51,367 bases of DNA, taken from positions 1-51,367 of the forward strand of contig DAHUZH010000008.1 of assembly GCA_027306695.1 (NCBI GenBank), written 5' to 3'. The notes beneath the pieces are model-generated. The model saw only the letters and a list, made by a program, of their open reading frames with translations. It was not told where the DNA came from and did not search any database. A program made the position numbers and the translations under genes. Shown here piece after piece: positions 23,736 to 46,036 of this stretch (position 1 is its first letter; each line of letters starts with the position of its first letter). Source of the stretch: Acidobacteriaceae bacterium (GTDB taxonomy: Bacteria; Acidobacteriota; Terriglobia; Terriglobales; Acidobacteriaceae).

Positions 23736-23767
23736 TCGAAAGTTTGGCATCGCAAGGGAGAAGCACC

Positions 23768-24697
23768 ATGACAGACCATAAAAATAATGGGAGCGGCGGA
23801 CACGGGTTGCGCTTGAAGGTCGGCCTGGCCGAGATGTTGAAGGGCGGCGTGATTATGGACGTCACCGACGCGCAGCAGGCCGAGATTGCGGAGCGGGCCG
23901 GCGCCGTCGCGGTGATGGCGCTCGAACGTGTGCCTGCGCAGATTCGTGCCGAAGGCGGCGTGGCCCGCATGGCTTCCATCAAAAAGATCAAAGAGATCAT
24001 GAGCGCGTCTTCCATTCCAGTCATGGCGAAGTGCCGCATCGGCCATTTTGTAGAGGCGCAGGTTTTGCAGGAACTGGGCATCGACTTCATCGATGAGTCG
24101 GAAGTGTTGACGCCTGCGGATGAACTCCATCACGTCGACAAGCACGCCTTCAAAACTCCATTTGTCTGCGGCGCGCGCGATCTGGGCGAGGCCCTGCGGC
24201 GCATTGCAGAGGGCGCGGCGATGATCCGCACCAAGGGCGAGGCCGGTACGGGCGATGTGGTCCACGCGGTGAAGCATCTGCGGCAAATCGTAAAAGACAT
24301 GCGCCAGTTGACCGTCATGGGTGAAGAAGAACTCTACGCGGCCGCCAAAGAACATCGCGCACCCTATGAGTTGATCCGCATGGTTGCGAAAAGCGGCAAA
24401 CTACCCGTGCCAAACTTCTCCGCCGGTGGCATTGCAACGCCCGCCGATGCCGCACTGGTGCGCCAGCTTGGCGCTGAAGCTGTTTTCGTTGGCTCGGGAA
24501 TTTTCATGAGCGACTCCACCACCTTTGCTCCGCCGAAGGAAGCCGAGATTCGCGCGCGCGCCATCGTCCGCGCGACCACGTTCTTCGACGACCCGAAGGT
24601 GTTGGCCGAAGCGAGCGAAGAGTGCACCGGCGCAATGAAGGGCCTGGCCATTTCCGCGATGGATCCGTCTTCTATGATGCAGACGCGCGGCTGGTAG
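23768..24697 (+). CDS. pdxS: Pyridoxal 5'-phosphate synthase subunit PdxS
   Basis: 309 residues, the synthase (lyase) subunit of the DXP-independent vitamin B6 pathway, which condenses ribose 5-phosphate, glyceraldehyde 3-phosphate and PdxT-supplied ammonia to PLP. Visible landmarks are MKGGVIMDV-like [18 protein letters not shown] at the start, the active-site lysine in [10 protein letters not shown], the second lysine in [14 protein letters not shown], and the phosphate-binding [15 protein letters not shown] and VFVGSGIF. The ATG at 23768 has GGGAGAAG upstream, better than the longer frame from 23744. It is followed by pdxT. Confidence 0.97.
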
Positions 24698-24741
24698 CGG
24701 ACTGCAAAACTACAGCTTCCACGATTGCAAACATACCTCCT

Positions 24742-25401
24742 ATGACTCGTTCGTCTCATGCAGCTTCGCCCGTTGTCGGCGTGCTGGCCTTACAGGGCGA
24801 CTACGCGCCGCACGCGCAGGCGCTCGAAGAGATCGGCGTGCGTACAAAAATGGTCCGTACGAAAGAGGAACTCGCGCAGGTCGATGCGCTGGTTCTTCCG
24901 GGCGGCGAATCGACCACCTTTCTGAAATTGCTGGATCGAGAAGGACTGTTTGTGCCACTTCAGAGCTTTGTACAAACACGACCTACATTCGGCACCTGCG
25001 CGGGCTGCATTTTGCTGGCGAAGAAGGTCTTGAACCCAGAGCAGCAAAGCCTTGGCGTGCTGAATGCGACGGTCGAACGCAATGCGTATGGCCGTCAAAA
25101 TGACAGCGAAATTCTGACCGAGGAAACTTCCCTGCCCGGCGGCCCGCTGGAGATGGTCTTTATCCGCGCGCCACGCATCGCAGATGTAGGCGATGGCGTG
25201 GAAGTGTTGGCCCGGCGCAGTGGCGCTCCTATTTTGGTGCGTGAGCAGAATGTTCTCGCAGCCACCTTTCATCCCGAGTTGTCGGAAGATCGGCGTATAC
25301 ATCGCTATTTCCTGCAAATGGTCGAGGAATTGCCAGACGCTAGCCACACGTCTCACTATAAAAAAACAGCGGTTGCCCAACCCGTTCGGACGAATCTGTA
25401 A
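24742..25401 (+). CDS. pdxT: Pyridoxal 5'-phosphate synthase glutaminase PdxT
   Basis: 219 residues, the glutaminase partner of PdxS. The class I amidotransferase signs are GVLALQGDYAPHAQALEEIG at the N-terminus, LPGGESTTFLKL, the nucleophile in FGTCAGCILLA, and the His/Glu pair in ATFHPELSED. A roughly 15-residue C-terminal tail follows the fold. The ATG at 24742 fits the family length; upstream frame is present but not homologous. The stop TAA overlaps the start of the oxidase subunit II gene by one base, so pdxST and the cox genes appear to be one transcription unit. Confidence 0.95.
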   Translation: MTRSSHAASPVVGVLALQGDYAPHAQALEEIGVRTKMVRTKEELAQVDALVLPGGESTTFLKLLDREGLFVPLQSFVQTRPTFGTCAGCILLAKKVLNPEQQSLGVLNATVERNAYGRQNDSEILTEETSLPGGPLEMVFIRAPRIADVGDGVEVLARRSGAPILVREQNVLAATFHPELSEDRRIHRYFLQMVEELPDASHTSHYKKTAVAQPVRTNL

Positions 25402-26168
25402 TGCCGCAACCGGTTCGGGGTGCAGGCTTATTCATCGCTCTGACAACACCCCAAACCTGGCTGCCGCGCGCAGGCTCGCTGCACGCTCATGCCATTGACG
25501 CGCTGCTGCGGTCCAGCTTGTTTCTGCTGTTCGTATTCTGCGTGTTGGCACAGGTGATGCTTGTTGCCGGCCTGCTCCCGCGGCGCGAGCAAAATCCTCG
25601 CTTTTCGCGGATTTGGCGATGGATCGCAACCGGCGCGATCGTGGTGCTGTTTGTGTGGATGACCATTACAGCGGAGCATCTCTGGTCCACGGTCCGGTTG
25701 ACACGCGCCGAAGCCAACGCAGTCCCAGTGGAAGTGACGGGCGTCCAGTTTCAATGGTACTTTCGCTATCCTGGCACGGACGGCGTCTACGGCAAAACGA
25801 AGCCGGAACTGATCGACGCCGCTGGAGGCAATCCTCTCGGACTCGATCCATCCGATCCAAACAGTCAGGATGATGTCGTCAGCAGCGTTTTGATGCTGCC
25901 CGTGGATCAGCAGGTGGACCTGCGATTGCGCGCACAGGATGTTGTCCACGGATTTTTTGTCCCTGGAATGCGCGTGATGCAGAACGCAACTCCGGGCCGC
26001 GTATCGGAGATTCACATGACACCGAATCATGTCGGTGACTACGCGATTCTCTGCTCGCAGGTCTGTGGACTGGGACACTATCGAATGCATGCCGTATTGC
26101 GCGTCGTCTCCACGCAGCAATTTTCTGCCTGGATGGCGCAGCGCGAAGCGGCGCAGACAGCGAGATAA
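25401..26168 (+). CDS. coxB: Cytochrome c oxidase subunit II (CuA)
   Basis: 255 residues. Two membrane spans (about 37-58 and 73-92) are followed by a periplasmic cupredoxin domain. The binuclear CuA ligands are all visible: His in DVVHGFFVP, then CSQVCGLGHYRM, which supplies two Cys, the bridging Glu-position carbonyl, His and Met. The aromatic entry patch is VQFQWYFRYPG. An insertion of about 30 residues rich in Asp/Pro (GNPLGLDPSDPNSQDD) lies between the aromatic patch and the first strand pair, as in oxidases of several acidobacteria and relatives. There is no fused cytochrome c domain, so a separate electron donor is needed. Confidence 0.93.
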   Translation: MPQPVRGAGLFIALTTPQTWLPRAGSLHAHAIDALLRSSLFLLFVFCVLAQVMLVAGLLPRREQNPRFSRIWRWIATGAIVVLFVWMTITAEHLWSTVRLTRAEANAVPVEVTGVQFQWYFRYPGTDGVYGKTKPELIDAAGGNPLGLDPSDPNSQDDVVSSVLMLPVDQQVDLRLRAQDVVHGFFVPGMRVMQNATPGRVSEIHMTPNHVGDYAILCSQVCGLGHYRMHAVLRVVSTQQFSAWMAQREAAQTAR

Positions 26169-26171
26169 CAT

Positions 26172-27851
26172 GTGATTGCATCGGCAACACATCGTCCAGC
26201 CCCGCGCTCGTGGATGCGACGCTATGTCTTCACCACTTCGCACCGCGTGGTGGGCGTGCAATATCTGCTACTCGGTCTTGCCGCCGTCGTAGGTGGGACA
26301 GTCCTGTCGCTGCTGATGCGGTGGCATCTTGCGTGGAGCGACGCGAACCTGCCTGGCTGGGGACAGATCAAGCCGGAGGATTATCTGGCGCTGGTCACGC
26401 TCCACGGTACGTTGATGATTTTTTTCGTGATGACGGCCGCACCGCAGAATGGACTGGCCAGTCTGATTTTGCCGGAGCAGTTGGGCGGAAGATACTCCGC
26501 GGGTCCCGAAACAAAAATCTCCGCGCGCATGGCGCTGCCACGGCTCAATGCGCTCTCCGTCTGGCTGACTCTGCTGGCATTGCTGGTATTGCTGGCTACG
26601 CCGTTTCTCCCCGGCGGCGCGGCCATCTCCGGCTGGACGAGCTATCCGCCGCTAAGCGCGATTCCTGCGGCTGGCCCCGGTCAGAGCTATGGCATGGACG
26701 GATGGCTGCTGGCAATTGCCCTGTTCTGTCTTGGCTCTCTGCTCAGCGCAGTCAGCGTGATCGCCACCGTCCTTACACGCCGCTTACAAAACATGCGGTG
26801 GATGCAGATGCCGTTGACCGCATGGTCGTGGTTCGTTGGCGCTTGCATGGTGTTCCCCGCCTTCAGCGTTCTGCTGGCTGCCTGCGGCATGTTGTTCAGT
26901 GACCGGCATCTTGGGACCAGCTTCTTTTTTCCTCCCATCGATGTGGTGAACAGCGTGGTGCTGCGCCACGCCGCCGGTTCCCCACTGCTCTGGCAAAACC
27001 TCTTCTGGTTCTTCGGGCATCCCGAGGTCTACATCGCCGTGCTTCCGGCGATGGGCCTGACGACCACATTGCTCGGGACATTCTCAGTGCGCCAAAGTCC
27101 CGGCTATCGGGCAGGCTATCGCACCATGGTCTTCTCGACCATCGCCATCGGTCTGCTCGGCTTTGCCGTGTGGGGCCATCACATGTTCGTCAGCGGCATG
27201 AATCCCTATGCCAGCCGTGGATTTGGGCTGCTGACTATTGCCATCGCCGTCCCTTCTTCGATTGAAGTAATCCAGTGGCTGGCCACGATTCTCACCGGAG
27301 GCCTGCGCCGCGCGACCCCTCTGTTGTTCACGCTTGGCTTTGTGTCGTTGTTCATCACTGGCGGACTGACCGGCCCCATCCTGGCGCAACCGATTCTGGA
27401 TAGCTATCTGCACAACACATTTTTCGTGGTCGCGCATTTTCATCTTGTCATGGGCATGGCCGGCGTCTTTGCTCTGTTTGCCGCCATCTATTATTGGTTC
27501 CCGCTGCTCACCGGGCGGCTGATGAGCGAACGACTGGGCCGGTGGCATTTCTGGCTCTCACTGATTGGCGCGTACGCGGTTTTCTTTCCCATGCACTTCG
27601 CCGGCCTGGCAGGCGAGCCGCGCCACTACGCGCAACTGACGGGCACGGCAGCGTATCTGGCGACATTGCTGCCGCTGCAACGATTTATTACCATCGCAGC
27701 GTTCCTGCTGGCGGCGACGCAACTGATTTTTCTGTGGAACCTGTTGCGCAGCCTGCGGCGCGGTGCGCCATCCCCCGCCAATCCCTGGAACGCCGAGACG
27801 CTGGAGTGGCCTTTGACGGAGGATTTCTTAGTGCGGGTGCATCCATCTTGA
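26172..27851 (+). CDS. coxA: Cytochrome c oxidase subunit I, divergent A-type
   Basis: 559 residues, 12 membrane spans. The metal ligands are intact: TLHGTLMIF for heme a, HPEVY for CuB and the cross-linked Tyr, GHHMF for CuB, and VVAHFHLV for the two heme irons. Against the Rhodobacter enzyme, read ungapped after HHMF, the K-channel helix TGIKV is SSIEV, so Thr359 becomes Ser and Lys362 becomes Glu. The D-channel entrance aspartate (Asp132, in APDMAFPR) is arginine in SARMALPR after an 11-residue insertion, and Asn121 is Ser. Glu286 and Tyr288 remain. Asp412 at the magnesium site is Asn and Arg482 is His. It starts at GTG 26172, four bases after coxB. It is probably an oxygen reductase, with an altered proton path. 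Confidence 0.93.
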   Translation: MIASATHRPAPRSWMRRYVFTTSHRVVGVQYLLLGLAAVVGGTVLSLLMRWHLAWSDANLPGWGQIKPEDYLALVTLHGTLMIFFVMTAAPQNGLASLILPEQLGGRYSAGPETKISARMALPRLNALSVWLTLLALLVLLATPFLPGGAAISGWTSYPPLSAIPAAGPGQSYGMDGWLLAIALFCLGSLLSAVSVIATVLTRRLQNMRWMQMPLTAWSWFVGACMVFPAFSVLLAACGMLFSDRHLGTSFFFPPIDVVNSVVLRHAAGSPLLWQNLFWFFGHPEVYIAVLPAMGLTTTLLGTFSVRQSPGYRAGYRTMVFSTIAIGLLGFAVWGHHMFVSGMNPYASRGFGLLTIAIAVPSSIEVIQWLATILTGGLRRATPLLFTLGFVSLFITGGLTGPILAQPILDSYLHNTFFVVAHFHLVMGMAGVFALFAAIYYWFPLLTGRLMSERLGRWHFWLSLIGAYAVFFPMHFAGLAGEPRHYAQLTGTAAYLATLLPLQRFITIAAFLLAATQLIFLWNLLRSLRRGAPSPANPWNAETLEWPLTEDFLVRVHPS

Positions 27852-27945
27852 ATTTGCTACAGTCCCTCTCCGACAAATTCCGTTCGATCTCATCGATTGT
27901 GAGCCGCTTTCGCTGTGATGCCGCATCCAAACGGGAGTAAACTGC

Positions 27946-28725
27946 ATGTATCCGGGGAAAGCCGCTATGCCTGCCATTATTACCCGCGCTCCAGTTGACA
28001 CCGAACGGAAAGACCCAGGCTTTGGTGGGCGTCCGCCTGTCGATCATCGCCCCACGGGTGGCGGAGGCGGGGACGAAAATTGGGAGCACCGCCCTCCCGG
28101 ACGCCGTGGCCCACGGGAACTGCTGACGCGCTATCGCATGGGACTGGGCTTTGCGCTGGCGGGCGACCTGATGTTCTTCATCACTCTTGTCAGCGCGTTT
28201 TTCGTACAGCAGCACACTGGACACATCGATCCCAACGACCAATTCATTCTCGATTGGCGGCCGCTTACCATTCCACCAATTCTCTGGATCAACACTGCCA
28301 TTCTGCTGCTGAGCAGCCTGACCATGGAAATGGGGCGGCGCAGCGTGTTTCACGAGGGCCATGTGATGGAAGAGTGGCTAGGCCTGGGACGGCCTACCTC
28401 CCGACGCGCGCTGCCATGGCTGATTGCGACGGCTGCTCTGGGAACTTTATTTATCGTGGGGCAATGGATGGCATGGGAGCAGCTTGCTTCCCAGGGTATC
28501 TTCTTCGGATCCAATCCAAGTAGCCATTTCTTTTATCTGATCACCGGCGCACATGCGCTCCACCTTGTGCTGGGGGTCGCGGCCATCGCAGCGGCCCTGG
28601 CTGCGCTGTGGTATGCCAGACGCATTGAAATCCGCCAGATCGTTGTCGATTGCGCTAGCTGGTACTGGCATGTGATGGGCGTCCTGTGGCTGTTTTTATT
28701 CGGCTTGTTGATCTTCGCCCAATAA
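27946..28725 (+). CDS. coxC: Cytochrome c oxidase subunit III
   Basis: 259 residues. The N-terminal 55 residues are a Pro/Gly/Arg-rich soluble segment. Five membrane spans follow, the short form of subunit III common outside mitochondria. Conserved parts are ALAGDLMFFITLVSAFF, PPILWINTAILLLSSLTM, an internal FHEGH, and the last two spans with YLITGAHALHLVLG and ASWYWHVMGVLWLFLF. GGGAG lies eight bases before the ATG at 27946. It is separated from coxA by 94 bases that show no frame of interest. Confidence 0.9.
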   Translation: MYPGKAAMPAIITRAPVDTERKDPGFGGRPPVDHRPTGGGGGDENWEHRPPGRRGPRELLTRYRMGLGFALAGDLMFFITLVSAFFVQQHTGHIDPNDQFILDWRPLTIPPILWINTAILLLSSLTMEMGRRSVFHEGHVMEEWLGLGRPTSRRALPWLIATAALGTLFIVGQWMAWEQLASQGIFFGSNPSSHFFYLITGAHALHLVLGVAAIAAALAALWYARRIEIRQIVVDCASWYWHVMGVLWLFLFGLLIFAQ

Positions 28726-45277: not shown

Positions 45278-46036
45278 ATGCCTAAAGAAGAAAGCGCGCG
45301 GTTTTTCAGGTATTTCGGTCCTTTACTGGATGCACTTCGCGATCTCGGCGGATCCGGGACACCGGATGAGGTCATTGAGCGGATTGCTCAGAAAATGCAA
45401 CTCTCCGACGATGTCCAGAATGAGCTAATACCATCGGGTCAGTCTCGTTTTCGGAACCAGGTAGCATGGGCACAGTACTATCTCGTCCGAGAAGGGCTTC
45501 TCGACTCATCGAAACGCGGTGTCTGGAGCCTTACGGAGCGTGGTCGGGCGACCCAACTATCTTCAGATCAATCTCGTGATCTCTACCGCAAGCTTATCCG
45601 CGGCTACCAAGAAGAACGTCGAGCAAAAGTAGTCGAGCCGGAACAGTCTCTTGAACAGTCAAGTGATTCCACCGGACCGATTTCAAAAAATTACCGCAGC
45701 GAGGTAATTAATTTGCTGCTTGCTTTACCATCGGATGGATTTGAACGCCTGTCCCAACGTTTGCTTCGCGAATCAGGATTTACGCAAGTATCAGTTACTG
45801 GCAGAAGCGGCGACGGGGGTATTGACGGGAATGGAACTCTTCAAATCAATCCGCTCGTTTCCTTCAAAGTCTTATTTCAGTGCAAGAAATACACCGGCTC
45901 CGTCATTCCGTCGCAAGTGCGGGATTTTCGCGGAGCAATGGCCGGCCGCGCCGACAAAGGCATCATTATCACGACGGGCACCTTCACCGCCGAGGCCCGC
46001 CGTGAAGCATCACGGGATGGTGTACCCCCCCATTGA
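45278..46036 (+). CDS. mrr: Mrr-type restriction endonuclease, frameshifted near the 3' end
   Basis: 252 residues as read. Residues 1-95 are the Mrr N-terminal winged-helix domain (YFGPLLDALRDLGGSGTPDEV and WAQYYLVREGLLDSSKRGVW). Residues 140-250 are the Mrr catalytic PD-(D/E)xK fold: RSGDGGIDGNG, then LFQCKKYTGSVIPSQVRDFR, with Asp, Gln and Lys of the active site. Mrr enzymes cut modified DNA. The frame breaks in a C7 tract (46025-46031); with six Cs it continues as PPIELIDGEKLIDMLEQLEL to a stop at 46148, the usual Mrr C-terminus. Catalytic residues lie before the break. It follows nuoN by 15 bases. Confidence 0.88.
   Translation: MPKEESARFFRYFGPLLDALRDLGGSGTPDEVIERIAQKMQLSDDVQNELIPSGQSRFRNQVAWAQYYLVREGLLDSSKRGVWSLTERGRATQLSSDQSRDLYRKLIRGYQEERRAKVVEPEQSLEQSSDSTGPISKNYRSEVINLLLALPSDGFERLSQRLLRESGFTQVSVTGRSGDGGIDGNGTLQINPLVSFKVLFQCKKYTGSVIPSQVRDFRGAMAGRADKGIIITTGTFTAEARREASRDGVPPH

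What the first reader, a model, noticed from the sequence alone, without database searches (positions are those of the whole stretch)
26172..27851. Oxidase subunit I lacking the standard D- and K-channel residues
All metal ligands, Glu286 and Tyr288 (Rhodobacter numbering) are kept. But Lys362 is Glu, Thr359 is Ser, Asp132 is Arg and Asn121 is Ser, with an 11-residue insertion at the D-channel mouth; Asp412 and Arg482 also differ. The helix VIII comparison is ungapped for 28 residues after HHMF. The enzyme may pump by another path, pump less, or have another role. NO reductases derived from this superfamily often lack the channels, but the retained Tyr favours oxygen reduction.
Basis: partly seen in the sequence, partly recalled or inferred. 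Interest (0 to 1): 0.65.

Follow-up and report, generated by a model that had tools for sequence, protein, structure and literature searches.

The report
Oxygen-using enzyme with abandoned proton channel
This soil-bacterium gene encodes an ordinary-looking oxygen-consuming respiratory enzyme, but one of its two proton entrances appears to have been given up and the other rebuilt with opposite charges, which makes it a natural test of how such enzymes pump protons.

Summary
Window 26172-27851 is CoxA of an intact pdxS-pdxT-coxB-coxA-coxC cluster in an Acidobacteriota MAG. Against Paracoccus 1ar1_A all metal ligands, Glu278 and Tyr280 are kept; D124R, N113S, N199S, K354E, D404N and R474H are real. 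The title overstates: 5 of 8 D-channel residues remain and T351S/S291T are mild.

The enzyme is not isolated. In its 98-sequence clade (SH-aLRT 99.6, tested columns excluded) Asp124 is gone in 97 (eleven replacements, 8 of them Glu; 37 parsimony steps), while ligands and Tyr280 are invariant. Position 354 is only Lys (72) or Glu (26). With Glu, the subunit-II K-channel mouth Glu78 is usually lost too (17 of 25, versus 1 of 69 with Lys); here K354/E78(II) has become E365/R73(II). Similar paralogues in the same family show the reverse: Asp124 kept, Lys354 and Glu78(II) lost.

Best reading: an A1-derived O2-reducing oxidase that gave up the D-channel antenna and takes protons mainly through a charge-inverted K channel, probably pumping less. 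Inner D-channel residues stay conserved (Glu278 96/98, Asn131 94/98), so a headless but working D channel is the main rival. No biochemistry was possible.

The parts
23744..24697 (+). pdxS, PLP synthase lyase subunit, first gene of the cluster
   Evidence: NCBIfam PRK04180 480.8 bits; synteny
24622..25401 (+). pdxT, PLP synthase glutaminase subunit (true start probably internal); its stop overlaps the coxB start (TAATG)
   Evidence: TIGR03800 215.7 bits; junction read; PdxT found in 80 of 98 clade loci, 73 of the 84 with at least 700 nt upstream of coxB
25401..26168 (+). coxB, subunit II: reads as two TM helices and a CuA domain; no cytochrome c domain found
   Evidence: PF00116 51.6 bits; CuA ligands H183, C218, C222, H226, M229 present
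25617..25619 (+). CoxB Arg73, at the column of the K-channel mouth Glu78(II) (Rhodobacter Glu101)
   Evidence: multiple alignment, (a first pairwise reading gave Ser)
26058..26060 (+). CoxB Gln220 in place of Glu218(II), a ligand of the Mg site (role recalled)
26172..27851 (+). coxA, A-type heme-copper oxidase subunit I
   Evidence: AlphaFold2 pLDDT 85.3; PDB matches
26460..26462 (+). Ser97 (Paracoccus Asn113 / Rhodobacter Asn121)
26490..26522 (+). 11-residue insertion in the loop at the D-channel mouth (exact limits arbitrary)
   Evidence: low pLDDT
26526..26528 (+). Arg119 (Paracoccus Asp124 / Rhodobacter Asp132), D-channel entry
27024..27032 (+). Glu285 to Tyr287 (Paracoccus Glu278, Tyr280), kept
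27264..27266 (+). Glu365 (Paracoccus Lys354 / Rhodobacter Lys362)
27414..27416 (+). Asn415 (Paracoccus Asp404 / Rhodobacter Asp412)
27946..28725 (+). coxC, subunit III
   Evidence: PF00510 45.9 bits

Best explanation
It is the catalytic subunit of an A1-derived, CuA-containing cytochrome c oxidase that reduces O2 to water at an intact heme-CuB-Tyr site (site shown by sequence; activity inferred). Its lineage has abandoned the acidic antenna of the D channel (shown: the site evolves freely), and its subgroup has rewritten the K channel as Glu365 in subunit I with Arg73 at the subunit-II mouth (shown as coupled substitution; contact inferred). Protons for chemistry therefore enter mainly through the remodelled K channel, much as B- and C-type oxidases use only a K-like channel, and pumping is reduced or absent (inferred, untested). 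In this genome it is a second oxidase beside an A2-like enzyme that sits with alternative complex III genes.
For: Asp124 absent in 97 of 98 clade members; 89 of 98 have neither Asp nor Glu there, and 68 of 98 have no acid anywhere from 117 to 131. 37 parsimony steps against a median of 9, rank 42 of 539 columns. Arg is common at the mouth: at 123 in 65 of 98, at 124 in 46. The sister group has Asp 28 of 28; 17 of 17 sequences from other families of the phylum sample have Asp and Lys. Six His ligands and Tyr280 98 of 98. Position 354: Lys 72, Glu 26; Lys to Glu five times by parsimony. Glu78(II) lost in 17 of 25 Glu354 and 1 of 69 Lys354 enzymes; 10 of 11 inferred changes at that site on the Glu354 background, which holds 27% of branch length (p 1.7e-5). 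dN/dS about 0.10. B-type ba3 has Arg100 at this place and no active D pathway (PMC12901375 passages).
Against: Glu278 is kept in 96 of 98, Asn131 in 94, Asn199 in 83, Asn113 in 78: a dead D channel could have let them drift further. Eight members have Glu at 124 and 30 of 98 have some acid between 117 and 131, among them the window, whose own insert carries a Glu. The p values do not fully remove kinship. No I/II interface was modelled, so a Glu365-Arg73 contact is not shown. I found no purified enzyme of the clade in the papers seen.
Confidence: 0.5

Rival explanations
1. Headless but working D channel: the inner water chain (N126, S129, Glu285) still carries protons, entering without the Asp, from loop acids, bulk water or lipid carboxylates; the enzyme still pumps.
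For: Glu278 96/98 and Asn131 94/98 conserved; acids in the insert of the window genus; Glu at 124 in 8 and some acid from 117 to 131 in 30 of 98. Recalled: Rhodobacter D132 mutants regain uptake with fatty acids or without subunit III.
Against: Arg is the commonest residue at 124 and common at 123; 68 of 98 have no acid from 117 to 131. A Paracoccus D-entry double mutant (D91N/Y19F in bovine numbering) is blocked in the proton-dependent steps (PMC12901375 passages).
Confidence: 0.3
2. Nitric oxide reductase or another non-oxygen role derived from an oxidase.
For: NORs lack the cytoplasmic channels (PMC3084760 passages), and channel residues are altered here.
Against: Cross-link Tyr 98 of 98; the second NOR motif named is absent from the translation; TIGR02891 CtaD is the best NCBIfam model (502 bits); CuA subunit II present.
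Confidence: 0.04
3. Pumping through an H-type pathway, with D and K used only for chemistry, so that pumping is unaffected.
For: A 2026 paper argues that this path is conserved in all families (PMC12901375 passages).
Against: The same paper calls the mechanism a matter of active debate (start of abstract); H-path residues of the window were not examined here.
Confidence: 0.06
4. Protons for chemistry come from the periplasm, as in cNOR.
For: Both cytoplasmic entries are altered, and two acids of the Mg site (location recalled) are neutralised in most of the clade (D404N 84/98, E218(II)Q 86/95).
Against: Position 354 and Glu78(II) co-evolve, unexpected if the cytoplasmic K path were unused; the Mg-site changes also occur in enzymes with both channels.
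Confidence: 0.07
5. Relict gene drifting after loss of function.
For: Several canonical residues are lost.
Against: Open frames, dN/dS about 0.10, invariant ligands, conserved cluster.
Confidence: 0.03

Closest known systems
A1-type aa3/caa3 cytochrome c oxidases (Paracoccus, Rhodobacter, mycobacteria)
   Same: Fold (Z about 49, rmsd 1.6-1.8 A over 495-502 residues to Rhodobacter structures, D132A and K362M mutants among them), ligands, Glu278, Tyr280, CuA
   Different: Asp124 and Lys354 replaced, mouth Glu78(II) is Arg, two Mg-site acids neutral, insert at the D mouth
B-type ba3 oxidase of Thermus
   Same: Works without an active D path; Arg at the Asp132 place (PMC12901375 passages)
   Different: Far in sequence (SoxB model 51 bits against CtaD 502); other K-path residues; Glu278 kept here
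A1 caa3 oxidases of Acidobacteriaceae (Trojan et al. 2021, PMC8407424)
   Same: Same family by the names of related records; extra single oxidase copies apart from complex III genes; low-affinity enzymes used at nanomolar O2 (abstract, passages, sections 9, 11, 13 seen)
   Different: I saw no channel residues discussed in the parts read; whether any of their copies is of the Asp-less clade is unknown
A-type oxidases with K-channel variants or losses in archaea (PMC8239418)
   Same: Natural channel variation inside family A is in print; the authors count seven K-channel losses under one of their hypotheses (passages)
   Different: There the K channel goes; here the D entry goes and K is rewritten. 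D-channel variants are mentioned there too, details not seen

Membership tests
A-type heme-copper oxygen reductase | Six His ligands and the cross-link Tyr in helix VI | tested here: met
A-type heme-copper oxygen reductase | D-channel residues D124, N199, N113, N131, Y35, S134, S193, E278 (list: PMC3084760) | tested here: not met
   D124R, N199S, N113S; the other five kept (helix-I Tyr equated with Tyr35 from recall)
A-type heme-copper oxygen reductase | K-channel residues K354, T351, S291, Y280 | tested here: not met
   K354E, T351S, S291T; Y280 kept
A-type heme-copper oxygen reductase | Sequence and fold inside family A | tested here: met
   CtaD best model, trees, fold
CtaD_CoxA equivalog TIGR02891 | Score above the curated cut-off 670.75 | tested here: not met
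   502.3 bits: best model but below cut-off
B-type oxidase | Alternative K channel with Thr/Ser/Tyr in place of Lys354 and neighbours | tested here: not met
   Glu at 354; SoxB model 51.3 bits
Nitric oxide reductase | Cross-link Tyr absent; motif HHX(Arom)(Arom)X17E | tested here: not met
   Tyr287 present; HHMFV is not followed by the Glu (read by eye)
Proton-pumping oxidase | H+/e- stoichiometry | not testable with these tools
   needs purified enzyme

The most novel reading that the evidence does not exclude
Within one bacterial family, related copies of an A-type oxidase have parted the two proton channels: one large clade lives without the D-channel antenna, another set of paralogues without the K-channel Lys and its mouth Glu, and inside the D-less clade the K channel has repeatedly changed its charges (Lys-I/Glu-II to Glu-I, in two lineages with Arg-II). 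The window enzyme would be a natural single-channel A-family oxidase, an evolutionary route to the B/C-type design.
Probability: 0.4. Interest if true: 0.82.

Novelty: new variant of a known kind. Interest (0 to 1): 0.66.

Why it matters
What each proton channel does has been inferred largely from crippled point mutants. Here are natural, selected enzymes in which one channel entry is missing, with a sister clade that keeps both and paralogues with the opposite loss, so the share of each channel in chemistry and pumping, and how K-only oxidases could arise, become directly testable. It also warns that acidobacterial 'low-affinity aa3' genes should not be assumed to pump 1 H+/e- in energy budgets.

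Tried and rejected
NOR reading: rejected on Tyr, motif and CuA. Relict gene: rejected on dN/dS and open frames. Misalignment at the insert: rejected because 95 of 98 clade members have no insert and 94 of those 95 still lack Asp. The coxB mouth residue was first read as Ser from the pairwise alignment to Paracoccus and is Arg73 in the multiple alignment. Search for a conserved new acid near the D mouth found none; acids gained at columns numbered 71, 258 and 483 in that output (one more than the protein number) seem to lie on the outer side by topology and were not followed. Electron donor: in G000 the only PF00033 hit is a cytochrome b fused to c-type domains beside a Rieske protein, a lead only. 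Cytochrome bd was not found in G000 (genome 91% complete).

Rows dropped before counts: coxA matches with under 450 aligned residues (the G006 and G008 pieces among them), the broken copy L022, L003 and the window copy as duplicates of L002, and rows with identical last 400 residues; 166 rows including Paracoccus remained. The set is the best-scoring part, whose list was cut, plus loci; it is not every family member. The 98-clade had support 0.2 in FastTree and 99.6 SH-aLRT in IQ-TREE without the tested columns; its joining with the 28-member sister has 86.8. One grouping behind the count of five Lys-to-Glu changes has support 5.3, so that number may shift. The one Asp in the clade (L193) is read as a reversal by parsimony. 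The K-less count holds 33 rows, of which L252 and L272 are one place, L018 comes from another family of the class, and L269 holds an in-frame stop; they were grouped by similarity and no tree of them was made. PdxT also lies in 8 of 28 sister loci, so the pdx link is probably older than the channel change.

Papers: seen as passages PMC8239418, PMC9599518, PMC3084760, PMC12901375, PMC8239185, PMC9687966, PMC8509429; PMC8407424 as abstract, passages and sections 9, 11, 13. All others only as search listings.

Full report
What is there. Window 26172-27851 (+) encodes a 559-residue heme-copper oxidase subunit I (PF00115 391.9 bits; CtaD model 502.3 bits, below its cut-off 670.75). It lies between coxB (25401-26168) and coxC (27946-28725); upstream, overlapping the coxB start by one base, is pdxT, and before it pdxS. 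Complex I genes follow: ORFs that read as NuoA, C and D from 30475 (by eye) and Pfam-confirmed F, G, H and antiporter-type subunits further on. The window is contig C370 of a 4.0 Mb, 91% complete genome; named relatives at 84-85% identity are MAGs labelled Acidobacteria, and one at 72% Acidobacteriaceae.

The observation. Against Paracoccus 1ar1_A (letters confirmed) the six His ligands, Glu278 and Tyr280 are kept; N113S, D124R, N199S, S291T, T351S, K354E, D404N and R474H are present. The 11-residue insert at the D-channel mouth occurs, in the 98-member clade described below, only in the three full-length sequences of the window's genus, and is a low-confidence loop in the model. 'Lacking' is too strong: N131, S134, S193, E278 and Y280 remain.

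It is real and selected. Congener genes carry the same residues; dN/dS of the window gene against two of them is 0.10. Five of the ten genomes of the genus have the gene, two of them only in pieces. The AlphaFold2 model (pLDDT 85.3) matches Rhodobacter and Paracoccus oxidases, with the Rhodobacter D132A and K362M mutant structures among the nearest.

A clade without the D-channel Asp. I compared 166 subunit I sequences including Paracoccus. The window protein belongs to a 98-member group of its family, support 99.6 when the tested columns are left out (only 0.2 in a quick FastTree). Asp124 is absent in 97 of 98: Arg 46, Ser 10, Glu 8, His 8, Gly 7, Thr 7, Gln 6, Asn 2, Lys, Val and Ala 1 each. 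The site needs 37 parsimony steps, rank 42 of 539 columns, median 9. No single acid is conserved near the mouth: 68 of 98 have no acid from 117 to 131, 30 have one somewhere, and Arg is common at 123 and 124. The sister group of 28 has Asp 28 of 28 and Lys354 28 of 28 (by difference). The 17 sequences fetched from other families of the phylum sample keep Asp and Lys, 17 of 17, and of the 20 named relatives outside Acidobacteriota, 15 have Asp and 5 Glu. Outside the 98-clade three Acidobacteriota MAG sequences (L070, L071, L073) also have Arg, and L069 has Glu, so departures from Asp are not unique to the clade.

The K channel is rewritten, not lost. In the 98-clade position 354 is Lys (72) or Glu (26) and nothing else. 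Lys to Glu is inferred five times, in two groups and three single tips; one grouping is weak. Subunit II Glu78, the mouth of the K channel (Rhodobacter Glu101; PMC8239185 and PMC9687966 passages), is lost in 17 of 25 Glu354 enzymes but in 1 of 69 Lys354 ones (Fisher p 8e-12, not corrected for kinship). On the tree 10 of 11 changes at that site fall on the Glu354 background, which holds 27% of the branch length (binomial p 1.7e-5). Replacements under Glu354 are Arg 8, Ser 3, His 2, Lys, Pro, Trp, Asp 1 each. In the window's group it is Arg (CoxB Arg73), so Lys-I/Glu-II has become Glu-I/Arg-II; a second lineage also went to Arg. This is coupled substitution across two subunits along the K channel.

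The reverse case. Similar paralogues, nearly all from the same family (33 rows, 32 distinct places, one from another family), keep Asp124 in 32 of 32 readable rows but have Leu, Ile, Met or Val at 354 in 33 of 33 and Val in place of Glu78(II) in 31 of 33. Thus one set dropped the D antenna and kept a charged K residue, the other dropped the K residues and kept D. One MAG protein, L073, has Arg124 and Thr354 together.

Evidence against a dead D channel. Glu278 stays in 96 of 98, Asn131 in 94, Asn199 in 83, Asn113 in 78. Either these are structural or serve a relay from elsewhere, or the D channel works without its antenna. I give the latter 0.3.

Other changes. Asp404 is Asn in 84 of 98 and Arg474 is His in 79 of 98; Glu218(II) is Gln in 86 of 95. 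Asp404 and Glu218(II) are Mg-site ligands and Arg474 lies by the heme propionates (recalled). Asp404 to Asn and Glu218 to Gln also occur in enzymes that keep both channels, so they are not diagnostic.

Setting. Of 26 genomes searched, 22 carry the Asp-less gene; in none of the 22 is a cytochrome b gene found within 100 kb on the same contig (some contigs are short), and in 17 of the 22 a cytochrome b gene sits a few kb from a different oxidase. This fits the additional single copies described by Trojan et al. (PMC8407424, passages). Those authors report that low-affinity oxidases of this family work at nanomolar O2; which of their genes belong to the Asp-less clade I could not determine. G000 itself shows this enzyme and an A2-like one (Glu278 is Ala) beside alternative complex III genes, no cytochrome bd, and a Rieske gene with a cytochrome b fused to c-type heme domains that could feed CuA.

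Mechanism. Shown: intact O2 site; unconstrained D entry; constrained and co-evolving K path; purifying selection. Inferred: O2 reduction, proton uptake mainly by the K path, lower pumping. B- and C-type oxidases, which lack an active D path, pump about 0.5 H+/e-, and ba3 has Arg at the Asp132 place (PMC12901375 passages).

Novelty. K-channel loss inside family A is in print (PMC8239418 passages), and B/C types lack D. In ten searches of the held library and the passages opened I saw no report of family A oxidases without the D-entry Asp or of a K354/E78(II) charge swap; most subscription papers are not held, and D-channel variants mentioned in PMC8239418 were not seen in detail. New variant of a known kind.

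Noticed in passing
L253-L282, L252, L017, L018: Paralogous oxidases that keep Asp124 but have Leu/Ile/Met/Val at Lys354 and mostly Val at Glu78(II): natural K-channel-less A-type oxidases.
   Followed up: partly
window 23744-28725: pdxS-pdxT-coxB-coxA-coxC is a conserved cluster across the clade (PdxT in 80 of 98 loci, also in 8 of 28 sister loci) with overlapping pdxT/coxB codons; why vitamin B6 synthesis travels with an oxidase is unexplained.
   Followed up: partly
L283:3664-7142: The only cytochrome b match in the window's genome is an 873-aa protein with four cytochrome c stretches, next to a Rieske protein; frames of about 890-920 aa with a cytochrome b match occur in G002, G004, G064, G113, G144.
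   Followed up: partly
L065 (same as L054) and L066: Two Asp-less clade members have also lost Glu278 (Gly, Val).
   Followed up: no
L073: Terriglobia MAG oxidase with both Arg124 and Thr354, Tyr280 kept.
   Followed up: no
L094: Qipengyuania oxidase with N113I, N131T, N199E, K354Q, Glu78(II) to Gly and His at the CuA Met column: another channel variant.
   Followed up: no
L022: In G016 the related coxA falls into two frames with a run of unknown residues; broken or misassembled copy.
   Followed up: no
window 45278-46036: Mrr-type restriction endonuclease directly after the complex I genes.
   Followed up: no
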